Position numbers and translations under genes: made by a program. Of a stretch of DNA of 64,000 nucleotides, positions 446 to 64,000 are shown piece after piece (position 1 is the first letter of the stretch; each line of letters opens with the position of its first letter). Under the pieces are notes generated by a model, which did not search any database, was not told where the DNA came from, and worked only from the letters and a program-made list of their open reading frames with translations. Source of the stretch: Neisseria sicca (GTDB lineage: Bacteria; Pseudomonadota; Gammaproteobacteria; Burkholderiales; Neisseriaceae); the NCBI RefSeq assembly GCF_003044565.1, contig NZ_POXG01000008.1, positions 62,001 through 126,000 of the forward strand, written 5' to 3'.

Positions 446-2149
446 TTACAGCAGCCAGCCGCCGTCGAAACGGTTTAAAAATTCGCTAAATTGCTGTTGC
501 GCCCTCTGGATGATGATTGCGTCCTGCGTTTCCAATACGGCTTCAAAACGCGCCATTTCTGCGGCGATGATGTGTCGGTTGTCGCCGAGAAATTCTTCGT
601 ACAGGCGTTTGGCTTTTTCCAACAAATAGATATTGTGCTGCTGGTCGCGCGGATGAATTTTCAAGGCGGCAAGTTTGCGCAGGGAGGCTTCGATTTCTTC
701 AGGCGTCAGGTTTTGGCTGTTTTGACGGAAAACCTGATTCATGTGCAGATTCAGGTCGCGGTTGCTGATGTCGACTTCCAAAAGCCCGTTGACGTCGTAG
801 CTGAAGCGGACGTCTATCGATACCTGACCTTTCGGCTTGGGCGGGACGTTGACCGACAGTTCGCCCAGTTTCAGGTTTTCTTTGGCCAACATGGATTCGC
901 CCTGCAAAACATCGACCAAAATCACTTTCTGCCCGTCGTGGGAAGTGATGAAAGTTTCGACGCGCGAAACGGGAACGGGCATATTGCGTTCAATAATCGG
1001 GAAAAAACGTCCGGTAACGTATTGGCCGATGTCCATGCCGGCTTCCGTGCCGAGCGAGAAGGGCATAACGTCGGTAAGGACGACTTCTTCCACGCTTTCG
1101 TTACGCGCAATCAGCGCCGCCTGCACCGCCGCGCCACGTGCAATGGCTTCGTCGGGATTGACCGAAACAAGCGGGATGCGGCGGAACAATTGGGCAATGG
1201 AATGACGGATCATCGGCATCCGCGTCGCACCGCCGACCAAGATGATGCCGTCGATTTGCGAAGGGTGCAGCTTGGCATCGCGCAATGCGCGTTCCAGCGG
1301 TTGACGCAGGCGACCCATTAATGGCGTGGCGGCTTCTTGGAATTCCTCGCGGCTGATGACGGCAGAGTGAACCGTGTCGCCGTCATGGAAACGGATTTCG
1401 GTCTGCATGTCTTCGCCGAGTTTGCGCTTGGCAGTTTCCAATACCTGCCACAATTCGCTGTTTTGCGCCAGTTTGTCGCTTTCAGACGACGTCAGTGTCG
1501 TACATTTTTTCAGGAAGCACTGGCGCAAGACGTTGACGAAATCTTCGCCGCCCAAATGGTTGTCGCCCGCGCTGGCGGATACTTGGACGACGCCGTCGAA
1601 ATAATCGAGTACGGATACGTCAAATGTCCCGCCACCCAAGTCGTAAATCAAAAAGCGCGTGTCGTCGGGTTTTTCCTGCAAACCGTAGGCAAGACCGGCG
1701 GCAGTCGGCTCGTTGAGCAAACGTAAGACGTTTAAACCTGCCATCTGCGCCGCGTTTTTCGTTGCCTGACGCTGGATGGCGTTGAAATAGGCGGGAACGG
1801 TCAGAACGACATCGCATACCGGTTCTCCCAAAAAGGCTTCCGCATCTTCTTTCAGGCTTTTTAAAATCAGCGCGGACAATTCTTCGGCGCGGAACGTGCG
1901 CTTGCCCAAATGGAAAGTTTTATCCGTTCCCATAAATCGCTTGAACGCCGAGGCGGTCAGCGTCGGGGCGGTGGAGAGGCGTTCGCGTGCGGCGATGCCG
2001 GTCAGGATGCTGCCGTCTTCGGCGACGCTGATGACCGACGGTGTCAGAAAATGGCCGTGTTGGTTGGGAATCAGGCGGGTTTCGCCGTTGTGGAACTGGG
2101 CAATCAGGCTGTTGGTCGTGCCTAAGTCGATACCGATTTGCAGGGTCAT
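446..2149 (-). CDS. hscC: Hsp70-family chaperone HscC
   Basis: This is a 567-residue Hsp70 homologue, ATP-driven and presumably cytoplasmic. The actin-type ATPase fold is shown by [10 protein letters not shown] near residue 5, a phosphate-2 motif [11 protein letters not shown] near residue 170, and the adenosine motif [10 protein letters not shown] around residue 305. The substrate-binding domain follows ([11 protein letters not shown]). The protein is about 70 residues shorter than DnaK and lacks its long lid and tail. That length, and the absence of dnaJ or grpE next door, fit the HscC/Hsc62 branch (about 556 residues in E. coli) rather than DnaK. It is monocistronic, with an inverted uptake pair upstream. 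Its client proteins cannot be read from the sequence. Confidence 0.88.
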
Positions 2150-2483
2150 GAATGTCTCGTTTCGGAGGGGTTTGAATGTGTTTCAGACGACCTTTCACAT
2201 CATCCGCATGGGGTCGTCTGAAAGAGGGAAGATTGCAAAATCATAACATTTCTTCCATTTGTATGGAAAATCCGGCGGCGTTTCGGACTGGCGGATGGCG
2301 CGCTTTGTTGCCGTTTGGGGAAGGAAAATGGTTGGAATGGTTTTTATCGTAAGATGGGTTGTGTATTTGCCGACGTTTCTAATCCGACATTGCTCTTGGC
2401 AATATAAATAAAAATAATAATTATTCTCTAATTTGGGAAAATATGTTAGGCTGATTTCTTTATTGTGTTAATGACTTAAGACG
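2150..2483. other. Divergent hscC-zupT intergenic region
   Basis: It holds an inverted uptake pair (2181-2223) beside hscC and a very AT-rich stretch at about 2400-2460 with the palindromic core AATAATTATT, just ahead of zupT. A metal-responsive operator would be plausible there, but I see no clear Fur or Zur consensus. Confidence 0.5.
2181..2223. repeat. Inverted uptake pair, TTCAGACGACC first
   Basis: TTTCAGACGACC at 2181-2192 is followed by GGTCGTCTGAAA at 2212-2223. It lies in the hscC leader rather than at a gene end. Confidence 0.6.
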
Positions 2484-3293
2484 ATGCCTGATATCAGCTC
2501 AACCAACCTCATCACCGCCTTCGGCATCGCCCTTGCCGCCGGATTGTTTACCGTATTGGGCAGCGGGTTGGTGATGTTTTCCAAAACGCCCAACCCGCGC
2601 GTATTGTCGTTCGGGTTGGCGTTTGCGGGCGGGGCGATGGTGTATGTGTCGCTGACGGAGATTTTCAACAAATCCAGCGAAGCCTTCGGGCAGGTTTACG
2701 ACAAAGACAAAGCCTTCGCCGCCGCGACGCTGGCTTTTCTGGCAGGCATGGGGGCGATTGCGCTGATTGACCGCCTTGTGCCGAACCCGCATGAAACGCT
2801 CGACCCGCACGACCCCGCCTTTCAGGAAAACAAACGCCGCCACATCGCCCGCGTCGGCATGATGGCGGCGTTTGCGATTACCGCGCACAACTTCCCCGAA
2901 GGTTTGGCAACTTTTTTCGCCACGCTGGAAAATCCCGCCGTCGGAATGCCGCTGGCGCTCGCGATTGCGATACACAATATTCCCGAAGGCATTTCCATTG
3001 CCGCGCCCGTTTATTTCGCCACCCGCAACCGCAAAAAAACCGTCCTCGCCTGCCTCGCTTCAGGGCTTGCCGAACCTTTGGGCGCGGTTTTGGGCTACAC
3101 CATGCTCAAGCCGTTTTTATCGCCTTTCGTGTTCGGCGCAGTGTTCGGCGTGATTGCGGGCGTGATGGTGTTTCTTGCGTTGGACGAATTGCTGCCCGCC
3201 GCCAAGCGTTATTCCGACGGACACGAAACCGTTTACGGGTTGACGTCCGGCATGGCGGTGATTGCGCTGAGTTTGGTGTTGTTTCATTTTTAA
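2484..3293 (+). CDS. zupT: Zinc transporter ZupT (ZIP family)
   Basis: This inner-membrane ZIP permease of 269 residues imports zinc and probably other divalent metals. About eight membrane segments are visible. The paired metal-site motifs are HNFPEG at residue 135 and HNIPEG at residue 164, the hallmark of the ZIP/ZupT signature. A cytoplasmic loop rich in charged residues (about 95-125) lies between the third and fourth segments. The length equals that of E. coli ZupT. The ATG follows a strongly AT-rich leader. It stands alone; the next gene on the same strand starts 304 bases later. Confidence 0.93.
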   Translation: MPDISSTNLITAFGIALAAGLFTVLGSGLVMFSKTPNPRVLSFGLAFAGGAMVYVSLTEIFNKSSEAFGQVYDKDKAFAAATLAFLAGMGAIALIDRLVPNPHETLDPHDPAFQENKRRHIARVGMMAAFAITAHNFPEGLATFFATLENPAVGMPLALAIAIHNIPEGISIAAPVYFATRNRKKTVLACLASGLAEPLGAVLGYTMLKPFLSPFVFGAVFGVIAGVMVFLALDELLPAAKRYSDGHETVYGLTSGMAVIALSLVLFHF

Positions 3294-51392: not shown

Positions 51393-51881
51393 ATTTTCAG
51401 ACGACCTTCGGGTTTACAAAGTGACGGAATATAACGGAAATGGGAAAGGGATGGGATATGGTATGACGAACGGCAATGTCGTGAGATAGGGCGATGAGGG
51501 GTCGTCTGAAAGCGTGTGCGATGTTTGGCATTTTTTGAGCGATAGGATGGGGTAGAACAATGAGCCTGCGGTTTGCCGATTATAGTGGATTAAATTTAAA
51601 CCAGTACGGCGTTGCCTCGCCTTGCCGTACTATTTGTACTGTCTACGGCTTCGTCGCCTTGTCCTGATTTAAAGTTAATCCACTATATTTGAGTGAGGGA
51701 GGGGGCTGAGTTTTAGGGCAGGTTCGGAATAGGGAGTATCGCACAGTTTGAAACAGCAAACAGCTTTTGCGAATGGCGCGTCCTAGCGTTTTCAGACGAC
51801 CTCCCCGCCTTCCGCCACCTTCTTAGGACTCTAAAATTTCTGCTAAAATCAAACGCCTTATCCCTTTCAGACGACATCGCC
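51393..51881. other. Intergenic region between DUF817 and phrB
   Basis: It holds scattered uptake words (near 51390, 51500 and 51790), one 107-bp Correia element and nothing else recognised. An uptake word TTCAGACGACA also sits ten bases before the phrB ATG. Confidence 0.55.
51581..51687. mobile_element. Correia element, 107-bp form
   Basis: TATAGTGGATTAAA and GTTAATCCACTATA ends with CGCCTTGCCGTACTATTTG in the middle; the full-length insert is absent. It is in the opposite orientation to the copy at 47337. Confidence 0.93.
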
Positions 51882-53374: not shown

Positions 53375-53481
53375 TATAGTGGATTAAAATTGCAATGATA
53401 CGGCGTTGCCAACGCCCTTATGTACTACCCGTACACGGCGGGCGTTGTCGCCTTGTCTCATTTTTATTTTAATCCACTATA
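53375..53481. mobile_element. Divergent 107-bp Correia-like element
   Basis: The termini TATAGTGGATTAAAAT and ATTTTAATCCACTATA are standard. The interior differs: GATACGGCGTTGCCAACGCC and GTACACGGCGGGCGTTGTCG replace the usual arms. Confidence 0.82.
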
Positions 53482-53682: not shown

Positions 53683-53711
53683 TTACTAATTTATTTATTT
53701 TTTGATATGAT
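53683..53711 (+). promoter_or_regulatory. Promoter of the T6SS gene block
   Basis: TGATATGAT at 53703-53711 is an extended -10. A weak TTACTA at -35 sits 17 bases upstream. Transcription would start near 53718, after the first in-frame ATGs, which supports the start at 53740. Confidence 0.45.
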
Positions 53712-53739
53712 GAGTAAATTTTTTAAAAAGGTAAAAACT

Positions 53740-54003
53740 ATGAAAGGTATTATCAGGCTGGGAGATTCAACTACTCATGGAGGCGTTGTGGTTCAAGCGT
53801 CTTCGGATATGGTCATTGAAGGAAAGCCTGCCGCTCTGGTAGGCGATTTGGTTTCTTGCCCCATACCCGGGCATGGAACCAATCCGATTATCGAAGGCAG
53901 TCAATATATGTCGTTTAAGGGGCGTGATGTTGCTGTGGACGGTTGTAAAACTGCATGCGGCTGCGCTTTGATCAGCAGTATGCCGACTGTCGGAAGCGAC
54001 TAG
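53740..54003 (+). CDS. T6SS PAAR spike-tip protein
   Basis: This 87-residue protein is a bare PAAR domain that sharpens the VgrG spike and can carry effectors. Repeats of the family are visible: GDSTTHGGVVVQAS, GDLVSCPIPGHGTNPII and KGRDVAVDGCKTACGC, with His and Cys residues that likely bind zinc. The frame starts 11 codons earlier at MMSKFFKK, but a ribosome site AAAAAGG precedes the MKGIIRLGD start. No toxin extension is fused. Confidence 0.88.
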   Translation: MKGIIRLGDSTTHGGVVVQASSDMVIEGKPAALVGDLVSCPIPGHGTNPIIEGSQYMSFKGRDVAVDGCKTACGCALISSMPTVGSD

Positions 54004-61984: not shown

Positions 61985-62524
61985 ATGAATAAAAAAACCA
62001 GAATTACGTCAGTCTGCTCATTAGCCCTTTTATGCGCCATGCTTTCAGGATGCGGGATTTGGCAAGGCATGAAAGATGGAACGGTTGAAGCAACGAAAAG
62101 CGTTTTTTATACCAAACTCAAGATTTTGAAAATCGACCTGATCGCACGAAACGGTTTGAATCAAAACGAGCGCGGGCAGTCGCTGTCGACAGTCGTCCGA
62201 GTTTATCAATTGAAAGACAAGCAAAATTATGAAGTTGCCTCATATCGTGATTTGCTCAATCAAGACAAAACCATCTTAAGCAACGATCTGGCGGAAGGTT
62301 ACAAGCAATATACCATCCGGCCGGGGGAGACCATCAGCTTTGATGAAACGCTGAATAAAGACACCAAATATGTCGGTGTTGTCGCTTTCTACAACAAAGT
62401 AGGGGAAGAGCAGACTTGGAAAATGTTGATTACCAAAAAGCAGCTGACCAATAAAAAACCGGTCGTTATCGAATTGGTGGATAACAAAGTCCTGCTTCAA
62501 GAGACGGTCAAGAAAGTCAAATAA
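61985..62524 (+). CDS. tssJ: T6SS outer-membrane lipoprotein TssJ
   Basis: This 179-residue lipoprotein has the lipobox LSGC (Cys23) and a transthyretin-like beta-sandwich after it. The VRVYQLKDKQNYEVASY block near residue 70 is the family signature. TssJ anchors TssM at the outer membrane. The stop codon's last base is also the first base of tssE, showing tight coupling. Confidence 0.9.
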   Translation: MNKKTRITSVCSLALLCAMLSGCGIWQGMKDGTVEATKSVFYTKLKILKIDLIARNGLNQNERGQSLSTVVRVYQLKDKQNYEVASYRDLLNQDKTILSNDLAEGYKQYTIRPGETISFDETLNKDTKYVGVVAFYNKVGEEQTWKMLITKKQLTNKKPVVIELVDNKVLLQETVKKVK

Positions 62525-62937
62525 TGGATGCCGCACTCTATGAGAAACTGACCGGATTTTATTCCGACGGTTTGCCGATAGATGACCTGCCGGGCAGCTT
62601 CCAGTTGGTTCGCAGTGTTTTGGACAATATCCAACGCATTCTTAACAGCAGGAGCGGTTCCTTGAAACATCTGCCGGATTATGGGATTCCCGATCTCAGC
62701 ATGGTTTATAAAAACCTGCCGTCCAGCGCGCATGACTTGCGGTATTTTATGAGGAAAACCTTGTTGAAATACGAGCCGAGATTAAGGAACTTGGATATCC
62801 ACCTCACTGAATCCAAAGACAATATCATGGTTTTATGTTATCAGCTGGAATGCGAAATAGAAAACGCGGGTGCGGTAGTTATAGACACTTATTTTATGCC
62901 TGAGGGGACGGTTTCCGTTAAACGCAGCCGGACATAA
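62524..62937 (+). CDS. tssE: T6SS baseplate protein TssE (gp25-like)
   Basis: This 137-residue phage gp25-like protein initiates sheath assembly on the baseplate. The conserved LLNSRSGS-like block ILNSRSGSLKHLPDYGIPDL (in parts) near residue 39 and the EPRL motif near 84 mark the gp25 fold. Neighbours TssF/TssG complete the wedge. Confidence 0.93.
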   Translation: MDAALYEKLTGFYSDGLPIDDLPGSFQLVRSVLDNIQRILNSRSGSLKHLPDYGIPDLSMVYKNLPSSAHDLRYFMRKTLLKYEPRLRNLDIHLTESKDNIMVLCYQLECEIENAGAVVIDTYFMPEGTVSVKRSRT

Positions 62938-62984
62938 GCTTTCTTTGGTGTGAATAGATTACTTTGAAAATTAAGAAATAAAAT

Positions 62985-64000
62985 ATGGTTAAACACATTT
63001 TCCTTACTTGCGGCGTGTTGCTTTCAGCAACCGCTCAAACCGCCTTTGCCAAAGAGCTGGAAGGCATGTTGGTCACTCAAAACAATTATGTCCGGATTCG
63101 AAGTTGTGATTTGAAAAACAATTACACTTTGCTCCCCGGTAGCGGAAACGGCTATGAAGCCGCAGCGGAAATCATCAGCGTCAGAAAAAATACGCCTGAA
63201 AACACACCAATCTATGTCGGGCTGAGAGGAAATCTGGAAAATACCAATTTTTTGATTTCCGGGATTGATTTCATCAAAATGGGCGAGAGCTGCCATGTAC
63301 CGCATACCGAAACCCCGCCTGCCGAAGTCGTTATTCGAGAGTATCCGCTTACTCAGCAGAAATCAGGTTCGACAGGAGAGAAGCCTGAGTCTAAACAAGA
63401 CAATTCGAAATTAAAGGCTACGGAATCCCAACAAGCTAAGGCAGAACAGGACAAACCGGAAGAAACGGCAGGCAAGTCAGAAGAGCCGATTCCTTATCCT
63501 GAAGTTACACAGACTAATCAATTGGAAGACAGTAAAAAGTCTGAAGACAATACAAATTCAGACGACCTTGTTAAAGAAAGTGTGAAAACTGAGGATGCCA
63601 AACAGACAGATACCGAGAAATCTGATCGCACAAATGCTGGCTCGGCGACACCGGAAGTATCAAATACAACTGCGCCAATTGAGAAAAAAACCGTAGAAAA
63701 CAAGGAAATTGATACGTCGGCTAAAGCAGAGGTATCTGAAACGGTAGAAGTGTCGGTCAAAGCGGAAACGCATGAAACGGTAGAAGCACCAACCCAATTT
63801 GAACCACTTGAAAAGGTAGAAACGCTGCCAACTAAGACTGAAATTTCTGAAACCGTAGAAACACCAGCCCAAACGGAAGCGCCTGTAACAGTAGAAACAC
63901 GGGTAACAACAGAAACTACGCAAGCTCCGATAGTGGAAGAAGTGTCGACAAAAGTGGTTGATGTAGAGGAACATTCGTCCGTATCTGAGCCCGTGGCTCC
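62985..64000 (+). CDS. Secreted protein with cysteine head and acidic repeat tail, partial
   Basis: The gene starts at ATG 62985 and runs off the window end; 338 codons are visible. A Sec signal peptide (residues 1-22, cut after AFA) is followed by a compact region to about residue 108 with two cysteines (RSCDL and ESCHV) that could pair. From about 115 on the sequence is highly acidic and rich in Lys, Thr, Val and Glu, then degenerates into repeats of the type SETVE / ETVEAP / EKVETL. No known domain. It lies 47 bases after tssE on the same strand, so it may be part of the T6SS transcript. It contains one local uptake word near 63559. Candidates are a periplasmic spacer or accessory factor. 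Confidence 0.55.
   Translation, partial: MVKHIFLTCGVLLSATAQTAFAKELEGMLVTQNNYVRIRSCDLKNNYTLLPGSGNGYEAAAEIISVRKNTPENTPIYVGLRGNLENTNFLISGIDFIKMGESCHVPHTETPPAEVVIREYPLTQQKSGSTGEKPESKQDNSKLKATESQQAKAEQDKPEETAGKSEEPIPYPEVTQTNQLEDSKKSEDNTNSDDLVKESVKTEDAKQTDTEKSDRTNAGSATPEVSNTTAPIEKKTVENKEIDTSAKAEVSETVEVSVKAETHETVEAPTQFEPLEKVETLPTKTEISETVETPAQTEAPVTVETRVTTETTQAPIVEEVSTKVVDVEEHSSVSEPVA

What the first reader, a model, noticed from the sequence alone, without database searches (positions are those of the whole stretch)
62985..64000. Unrecognised secreted repeat protein at the end of the T6SS genes
An open frame with a signal peptide, a two-cysteine head of about 85 residues and a long Glu/Thr/Val repeat tail lies 47 bases after tssE in the same direction. 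It does not match any core Tss protein I know. The low-complexity tail resembles envelope-spanning or surface spacers. It may be a lineage-specific T6SS accessory or an unrelated gene at the block edge.
Basis: partly seen in the sequence, partly recalled or inferred. Interest (0 to 1): 0.65.

Follow-up and report, generated by a model that had tools for sequence, protein, structure and literature searches.

The report
Neisseria T6SS-A accessory protein
A gene of unknown function sits at the end of a bacterial weapon's gene block in commensal Neisseria and was found only with that weapon, so it probably encodes an exported helper part of the machine, although its job has not been tested.

Summary
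The frame is real. It starts at 62985, 47 bases after tssE, runs past the window end and totals 433 residues: an apparent Sec signal peptide, an ~84-residue head with two invariant cysteines, and a 327-residue acidic, probably disordered tail. The cluster is the published neisserial T6SS-A cluster A (PMC10210955), whose operon lists stop at tssE. The four distinct heads have diverged about as much as TssM and TssA. The head is under strong purifying selection (11 base changes, no amino-acid change, in 84 codons between two genomes); the tail drifts. In one genome the gene has moved ~350 kb yet is intact. In another it is cut by an insertion sequence beside a truncated tssF. Best reading: a lineage-specific periplasmic T6SS-A accessory, working like TslA/AsaA or TssW but not shown to be related. 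Function, partner and localisation are inferred.

The parts
62985..64000 (+). Gene of interest (first 338 of 433 codons; it continues to G000:C8:126286)
62985..63050 (+). Apparent Sec signal peptide (codons 1-22, ...TAFA/KE)
   Evidence: Read by eye; hydrophobic starts also in the G027, G045 and G006 homologues. No prediction program run.
63051..63302 (+). Conserved head (residues 23-106) with invariant Cys41 (63105-63107) and Cys103 (63291-63293)
   Evidence: Alignments A1/A2: both Cys invariant; purifying selection
63303..64000 (+). Start of the acidic Glu/Thr/Val/Pro-rich tail (residues 107 onward), classed as disordered, sequence not conserved between distant homologues
62938..62984 (+). 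47-base tssE-gene gap without a terminator-like hairpin (folds at -1.9 kcal/mol)
62524..62937 (+). tssE
   Evidence: PF04965 and TIGR03357
61985..62524 (+). tssJ
   Evidence: PF12790 and TIGR03352
60855..61964 (+). tssG
   Evidence: PF06996 and TIGR03347
59125..60891 (+). tssF
   Evidence: PF05947 and TIGR03359
57490..59115 (+). tssA
   Evidence: PF06812, PF16989 and TIGR03362
54215..57490 (+). tssM
   Evidence: PF06761, PF21070, PF06744; TIGR03348 matches below its cut-off
53707..54003 (+). PAAR gene
   Evidence: PF05488
53375..53481 (.). Correia-type repeat upstream of the block (a partner lies downstream at L004:3124-3230)
   Evidence: Terminal repeat motifs; CREE flanking core cluster A is published for N. 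sicca/N. macacae

Best explanation
It is a lineage-specific accessory part of the neisserial T6SS-A. Steps supported by sequence: the gene is the last of the tssM-A-F-G-J-E block in four of six genomes; it goes with T6SS-A and not with T6SS-B; the head is a selected domain with two invariant cysteines. Steps inferred: the signal peptide sends the protein through Sec; the head folds in the periplasm around a Cys41-Cys103 disulfide; it docks on the T6SS-A trans-envelope complex (most likely the periplasmic part of TssM or the TssJ lipoprotein) and helps that complex assemble or be placed; the long acidic tail is a flexible spacer or tether whose character, not sequence, matters.
For: Profile: head found in 6 of 46 Neisseria genomes and in the same 6 of 83 Neisseriaceae with a four-row profile. 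These are exactly the 6 with a second TssG and TssF of the window's type. The 8 Neisseria genomes with only the other type and the 16 T6SS-bearing genomes of other genera lack it. Adjacency: directly after tssE in G000, G019, G026 (47 bases) and the divergent G027 (17 bases). Signals: no terminator in the gap; a DUS inverted repeat follows the gene by 56 and 60 bases in G019 and G026. Age: the four distinct heads share 44-60% identity, against TssM 46-50% and TssA 46-51% (three lineages each; not found near the G006 gene) and TssJ 54-61% (four lineages). Selection: 11 base changes and no amino-acid change in 84 head codons, G000 vs G019. Separation: in G045 the gene lies ~350 kb from cluster A but is intact, with T6SS-A clusters A and B present. 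Co-decay: in G006 the frame is closed by an IS end, tssF is truncated, and tssM and tssA are not in the 20 kb held.
Against: No experiment, no interaction partner, no usable structure (AlphaFold2 mean pLDDT 47.1 and 38.8). Only six genomes, three of them nearly identical, so about four independent points. All six carry both T6SS types; strains with T6SS-A alone, described in print, could not be examined. In G027 no DUS inverted repeat follows the gene within the next 4 kb. In 5 of the 8 non-Neisseria tssE loci found, those examined, no such gene follows tssE. The relocated G045 copy shows operon membership is not required.
Confidence: 0.6

Rival explanations
1. A passenger: an unrelated exported envelope protein that happens to lie inside the repeat-flanked T6SS-A block and is carried along with it.
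For: Last gene of the block; insertion sequences nearby in G000, G006 and G045 (assigned by reading); the gene is separable from the block in G045.
Against: Present in all 6 T6SS-A genomes found, across four lineages whose TssJ are 54-61% identical, and in none of the other 77 family genomes searched; head under strong purifying selection; kept intact when 350 kb away.
Confidence: 0.2
2. A surface-exposed or released protein (adhesin or shield) whose tail is a surface spacer, carried and perhaps co-expressed with T6SS-A but not part of it.
For: Long acidic low-complexity tail that varies in length between close relatives.
Against: No lipobox, sortase signal, transmembrane segment or barrel seen by reading (no program run); gives no reason for the strict T6SS-A linkage.
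Confidence: 0.1
3. A self-protection (immunity-like) periplasmic protein that shields the producer from a T6SS-A effector.
For: Apparent signal peptide, small two-cysteine head, strict linkage to one T6SS type.
Against: No effector gene recognised beside it by reading: tssE precedes, an inverted repeat, IS or unrelated genes follow; the head is very conserved whereas immunity proteins usually diversify (general knowledge); the long tail has no role in this model.
Confidence: 0.07

Closest known systems
TslA/AsaA of Acinetobacter (PMC6602968 and PMC10564176, passages read)
   Same: Exported periplasmic protein of a T6SS cluster, restricted to one genus, no known domain; binds the periplasmic part of TssM; its loss lowers membrane-complex foci.
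   Different: 230 residues, predicted alpha-helical; Acinetobacter lacks a recognisable TssJ whereas this cluster has one. Sequences were not compared.
TssW of Acidovorax citrulli (PMC12607579, passages read)
   Same: Exported T6SS accessory that contacts TssM (and TssJ more weakly) and sets where the machine assembles.
   Different: tssW lies between ppkA and fha and is an outer-membrane protein; here the gene follows tssE and no kinase or FHA gene was recognised by reading. Sequences were not compared.
NlpE C-terminal domain (PF17185)
   Same: Similar length; cysteines 69 residues apart in three of the four distinct heads (62 in the window's) and in the NlpE_C of L070 (own count); the 77-column profile alignment keeps both cysteines in register.
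   Different: No Pfam hit; hhalign P 0.024-0.066; 14 of 200 column shuffles score as well; in the reverse direction only 37-39 columns align. Not a supported relationship.
Neisserial T6SS-A cluster A (PMC10210955; sections 17 and 20-22 plus passages read)
   Same: The same tssM-A-F-G-J-E block, with Correia repeats on both sides and PAAR at the cluster.
   Different: The published operon lists end at tssE; this gene is not named in the parts read. The figures and supplements were not seen.

Membership tests
T6SS core (Tss) proteins | Match to a Tss family model | tested here: not met
   Full protein: best Pfam hit DUF4407 at E 4.3, no NCBIfam hit; residues 1-115: one NCBIfam hit, fumarate reductase cytochrome b, at E 0.21 in the signal-peptide part
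T6SS accessory of T6SS-A | Encoded with the T6SS genes, same strand, no terminator between | tested here: met
   Directly after tssE in 4 of 6 genomes; no terminator-like site in the gap. Not so in G045 and G006.
T6SS accessory of T6SS-A | Occurs only with that T6SS | tested here: met
   6 of 6 T6SS-A genomes, 0 of 40 other Neisseria, 0 of 37 other Neisseriaceae
T6SS accessory of T6SS-A | Needed for Hcp secretion, killing or assembly | not testable with these tools
   Needs a deletion mutant
TslA/AsaA | Exported protein of a T6SS cluster, restricted to one genus | tested here: inconclusive
   Genus restriction holds in the genomes searched; export rests on reading the signal peptide only
TslA/AsaA | Sequence homology to AsaA | not tested
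   No AsaA sequence was fetched
TslA/AsaA | Binds periplasmic TssM | not testable with these tools
   Needs pull-down or two-hybrid
TssW | Gene between ppkA and fha | tested here: not met
   Neighbours are tssE and an inverted repeat or IS; ppkA and fha were not searched for elsewhere
NlpE C-terminal domain PF17185 | Match to the family model | tested here: not met
   0 Pfam hits for 4 of 4 heads at E<=10; a home-made NlpE_C profile gives E 0.009 to 0.77 on the 5 heads
NlpE C-terminal domain PF17185 | OB fold | tested here: inconclusive
   Both AlphaFold2 models too poor; strands only, no helix in either
T6SS immunity proteins | Gene next to a cognate effector | tested here: not met
   No effector recognised by reading beside the gene in G000, G027, G045; neighbours were not run through family libraries

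The most novel reading that the evidence does not exclude
A new family of periplasmic T6SS part with an unusual build: a disulfide-held head, possibly an NlpE_C-like OB domain, on the membrane complex, plus a 190-370-residue disordered acidic tail that acts as a tether or contact sensor across the envelope, licensing T6SS-A assembly where the cell touches a neighbour and setting T6SS-A apart from the co-resident T6SS-B.
Probability: 0.12. Interest if true: 0.7.

Novelty: new variant of a known kind. Interest (0 to 1): 0.45.

Why it matters
All six Neisseria genomes found with T6SS-A also carry a second T6SS, and the published T6SS-A operon lists read here end at tssE. A further conserved gene found only with T6SS-A is a concrete candidate for how this machine is assembled or placed in the envelope, and for how two T6SSs in one cell are kept apart. 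If confirmed it would join TslA and TssW as a lineage-restricted exported T6SS accessory, with an architecture (two-cysteine head, long disordered tail) unlike what the passages read describe for those two. It can be tested with one deletion.

Tried and rejected
Known families: full protein and head against Pfam and NCBIfam, heads against PHROGs: nothing beyond chance. PHROGs gave two families of unknown function, each matched by 1 of 5 members, at E 0.025 and 0.13. Solved structures: profile A1 gave two hits, E 0.76 and 2. Species-representative contigs with the single protein: 75 pattern stretches, 1 relative, Neisseria sp. HMSC077D05, whose contig has the same length as the G026 contig, so L006 stands for G026 and is not an extra genome. 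Viral contigs: 60 stretches, 0 relatives. Plasmids: no match. Order-level profile search, 399 genomes: besides 2 Neisseria, two weak hits at E 0.012 (frame with a stop) and 0.040 (36 positions only), taken as chance; only the first was looked at.

NlpE_C idea: it arose from a recalled resemblance. I built a profile from 14 loci plus E. coli K-12 NlpE (L061, L062 and L077 dropped: no tblastn match at 1e-5). Forward and reverse scores 14.9-17.1, P 0.024-0.066. Control: 14 of 200 column shuffles reached 14.9, the score without E. coli and the partial L076; the 17.1 pairing was not shuffled; the reversed profile scored 12.4. Head against TssJ and TssE gave P 0.75 and 0.32. NlpE_C ranks above these but is not significant and is not claimed.

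Structure: alignments with homologues from the genome search were not sent to structure prediction, because its stated rule does not list that source. Only window letters (both jobs) and L006 letters (first job) were sent; both models are unusable, so no fold search was run.

Own arithmetic, no call: hitting exactly the 6 T6SS-A genomes out of 46 has odds of 1 in 9.4 million if genomes were independent, which they are not, so it is not used as a P-value.

Full report
What is there. The window lies at G000:C8:62001-126000 of a 2.78 Mb Neisseria genome. The frame at 62985 is real and runs on beyond the window to give 433 residues. Residues 1-22 read as a Sec signal peptide (by eye). Residues 23-106 form a head with Cys41 and Cys103. 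Residues 107-433 form an acidic tail with 54 E, 46 T and 38 V, net charge -40, disordered by the charge-hydropathy rule. A third cysteine, Cys9, is in the signal peptide and does not read as a lipobox. In this genome the tail has no tandem DNA array.

The neighbourhood. [quoted passage not shown] TssM is below the NCBIfam cut-off but over Pfam's). This is the published neisserial T6SS-A cluster A (PMC10210955; sections 17 and 20-22 and passages read), whose operon predictions list tssM to tssE only. A figure legend in PMC13375697 (passages read) mentions hypothetical non-T6SS genes at that cluster in N. subflava; I could not see whether this gene is one of them. The other half of T6SS-A (ClpV, Hcp, an OmpA-ended TagL-like protein, TssL, TssK, TssB, TssC) is on another contig of the same genome (named by reading; TssK by model), so the system looks complete. 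A TssG of the other type lies at C1:89503.

Transcription signals. The 47-base gap has no terminator-like site and folds at only -1.9 kcal/mol. No promoter-like site was found on the gene's strand in 62400-64000; one lies on the other strand, against 2.3 expected. In G019 and G026 an inverted pair of DNA uptake sequences followed by CTTTT begins 56 and 60 bases after the gene; PMC10210955 notes that such repeats can terminate or attenuate transcription. G027 has no such repeat in the 4 kb after the gene. In the window's genome an insertion element (IS3-like by reading) sits inside that hairpin, seen as two separated halves. Correia-type repeats bracket the block in G000, at window 53375-53481 and L004:3124-3230. 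G019 has the downstream one; its upstream side was barely covered by the stretch fetched. L006 (G026) shows none in the sequence held. Bracketing of cluster A by CREE is published for N. sicca and N. macacae. In G045, which lacks the gene at this place, a DUS inverted repeat stands 36 bases after tssE, and the relocated gene has another 122 bases after its end.

Distribution. The head was found in 6 of 46 Neisseria genomes and, with a four-row profile, in the same 6 of 83 Neisseriaceae. TssG and TssF searches show 14 of 46 Neisseria genomes with a T6SS; exactly 6 of these carry a second TssG of the 203-223-bit class, and they are the same six. So the gene is in 6 of 6 T6SS-A genomes, 0 of 8 with only the other type, and 0 of 32 without T6SS. 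In the other genera 16 of 37 genomes have a TssG and none has the gene. Assignment to T6SS-A rests on TssG score class plus direct comparison of the loci. The order-level search of 399 genomes found no credible relative outside the genus. A TssE search of that order found 8 non-Neisseria genomes; in the 5 best, the gene after tssE is not this one (two read as tssK). The other 3 were not examined.

Age and selection. The gene sits 17 bases after tssE in G027 too, although TssM there is only 50% identical. The four distinct heads share 44-60% identity, comparable to TssM at 46-50% and TssA at 46-51% (three lineages each) and TssJ at 54-61% (four lineages). This fits inheritance with T6SS-A from a common ancestor. 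Between G000 and G019 the head has 11 base changes, none changing an amino acid (dN 0, dS 0.24); the tail has 44 amino-acid changes over 327 codons plus 17 gap codons. Tails of G027 and G045 are unlike in sequence but also classed as disordered.

Two natural tests. G045 keeps an intact 493-residue copy about 350 kb from cluster A, beside a transposase-like frame, with T6SS-A clusters A and B present. No tssE remnant was found beside the moved copy. G006 has a copy of 146 codons whose frame is closed by the end of an insertion sequence, next to a truncated tssF; tssM and tssA are not in the 20 kb held, and the rest of that genome was not searched for them. PMC10210955 reports that N. canis lacks tssA and tssM and has tssF preceded by a transposase, which matches G006. 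Loss of the gene thus accompanies decay of the machine.

How it most likely works. Supported by sequence: linkage to T6SS-A, a likely export signal, a selected two-cysteine head, a drifting disordered tail. Inferred: the head folds in the periplasm with a disulfide and docks on the trans-envelope complex, with TssM or TssJ as likeliest partners, helping it assemble or be placed; the tail is a flexible spacer. The reasoning is by analogy with TslA/AsaA, a genus-restricted periplasmic protein of the Acinetobacter T6SS that binds TssM (PMC6602968, PMC10564176, passages), and TssW of Acidovorax, an exported protein that contacts TssM and positions the machine (PMC12607579, passages). I did not compare sequences with either.

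What it is not, as far as tested. It matches no Tss family, no Pfam or NCBIfam model and no solved structure by sequence. A resemblance to the NlpE C-terminal OB domain, including equal cysteine spacing in three of four heads, did not pass a shuffle control (14 of 200). Both structure predictions, made nearly without an alignment, are too poor to use.

Limits. Six genomes represent about four lineages. All six carry both T6SS types; no strain with T6SS-A alone could be examined. Five searches of the open-access paper library (listings, and passages of the papers named above and of PMC7643975) showed no paper on this gene; that is not proof that none exists. Function needs a deletion mutant.

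Noticed in passing
L004 about 1761-3012 (just beyond the window): An IS3-like insertion element (by reading) sits inside the loop of the DUS inverted repeat that follows the gene, leaving the two arms apart; G019 and G026 have the repeat uninterrupted.
   Followed up: partly
L033:7127-7735: In G045 the tail of the homologue is a 21-base array of 29 copies (QPEVSEA-type heptads), a likely length-variable locus.
   Followed up: no
L035:4877-15159: G006 (N. canis-like by published description) has T6SS-A pieces side by side around several insertion elements: Hcp, ClpV, the cut accessory gene, truncated tssF, tssG, tssJ, tssE.
   Followed up: partly
G000:C1:80001-100000 (L039): The same genome carries a second T6SS (TssG at C1:89503-90405; T6SS-B by published naming). 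The stretch was fetched but not analysed.
   Followed up: no
51581-51687 and 53375-53481: Two Correia-type 107-base elements lie 1.7 kb apart upstream of the PAAR gene.
   Followed up: no
L036:17529-18906: Four closely spaced DUS inverted repeats downstream of the G027 T6SS-A block.
   Followed up: no
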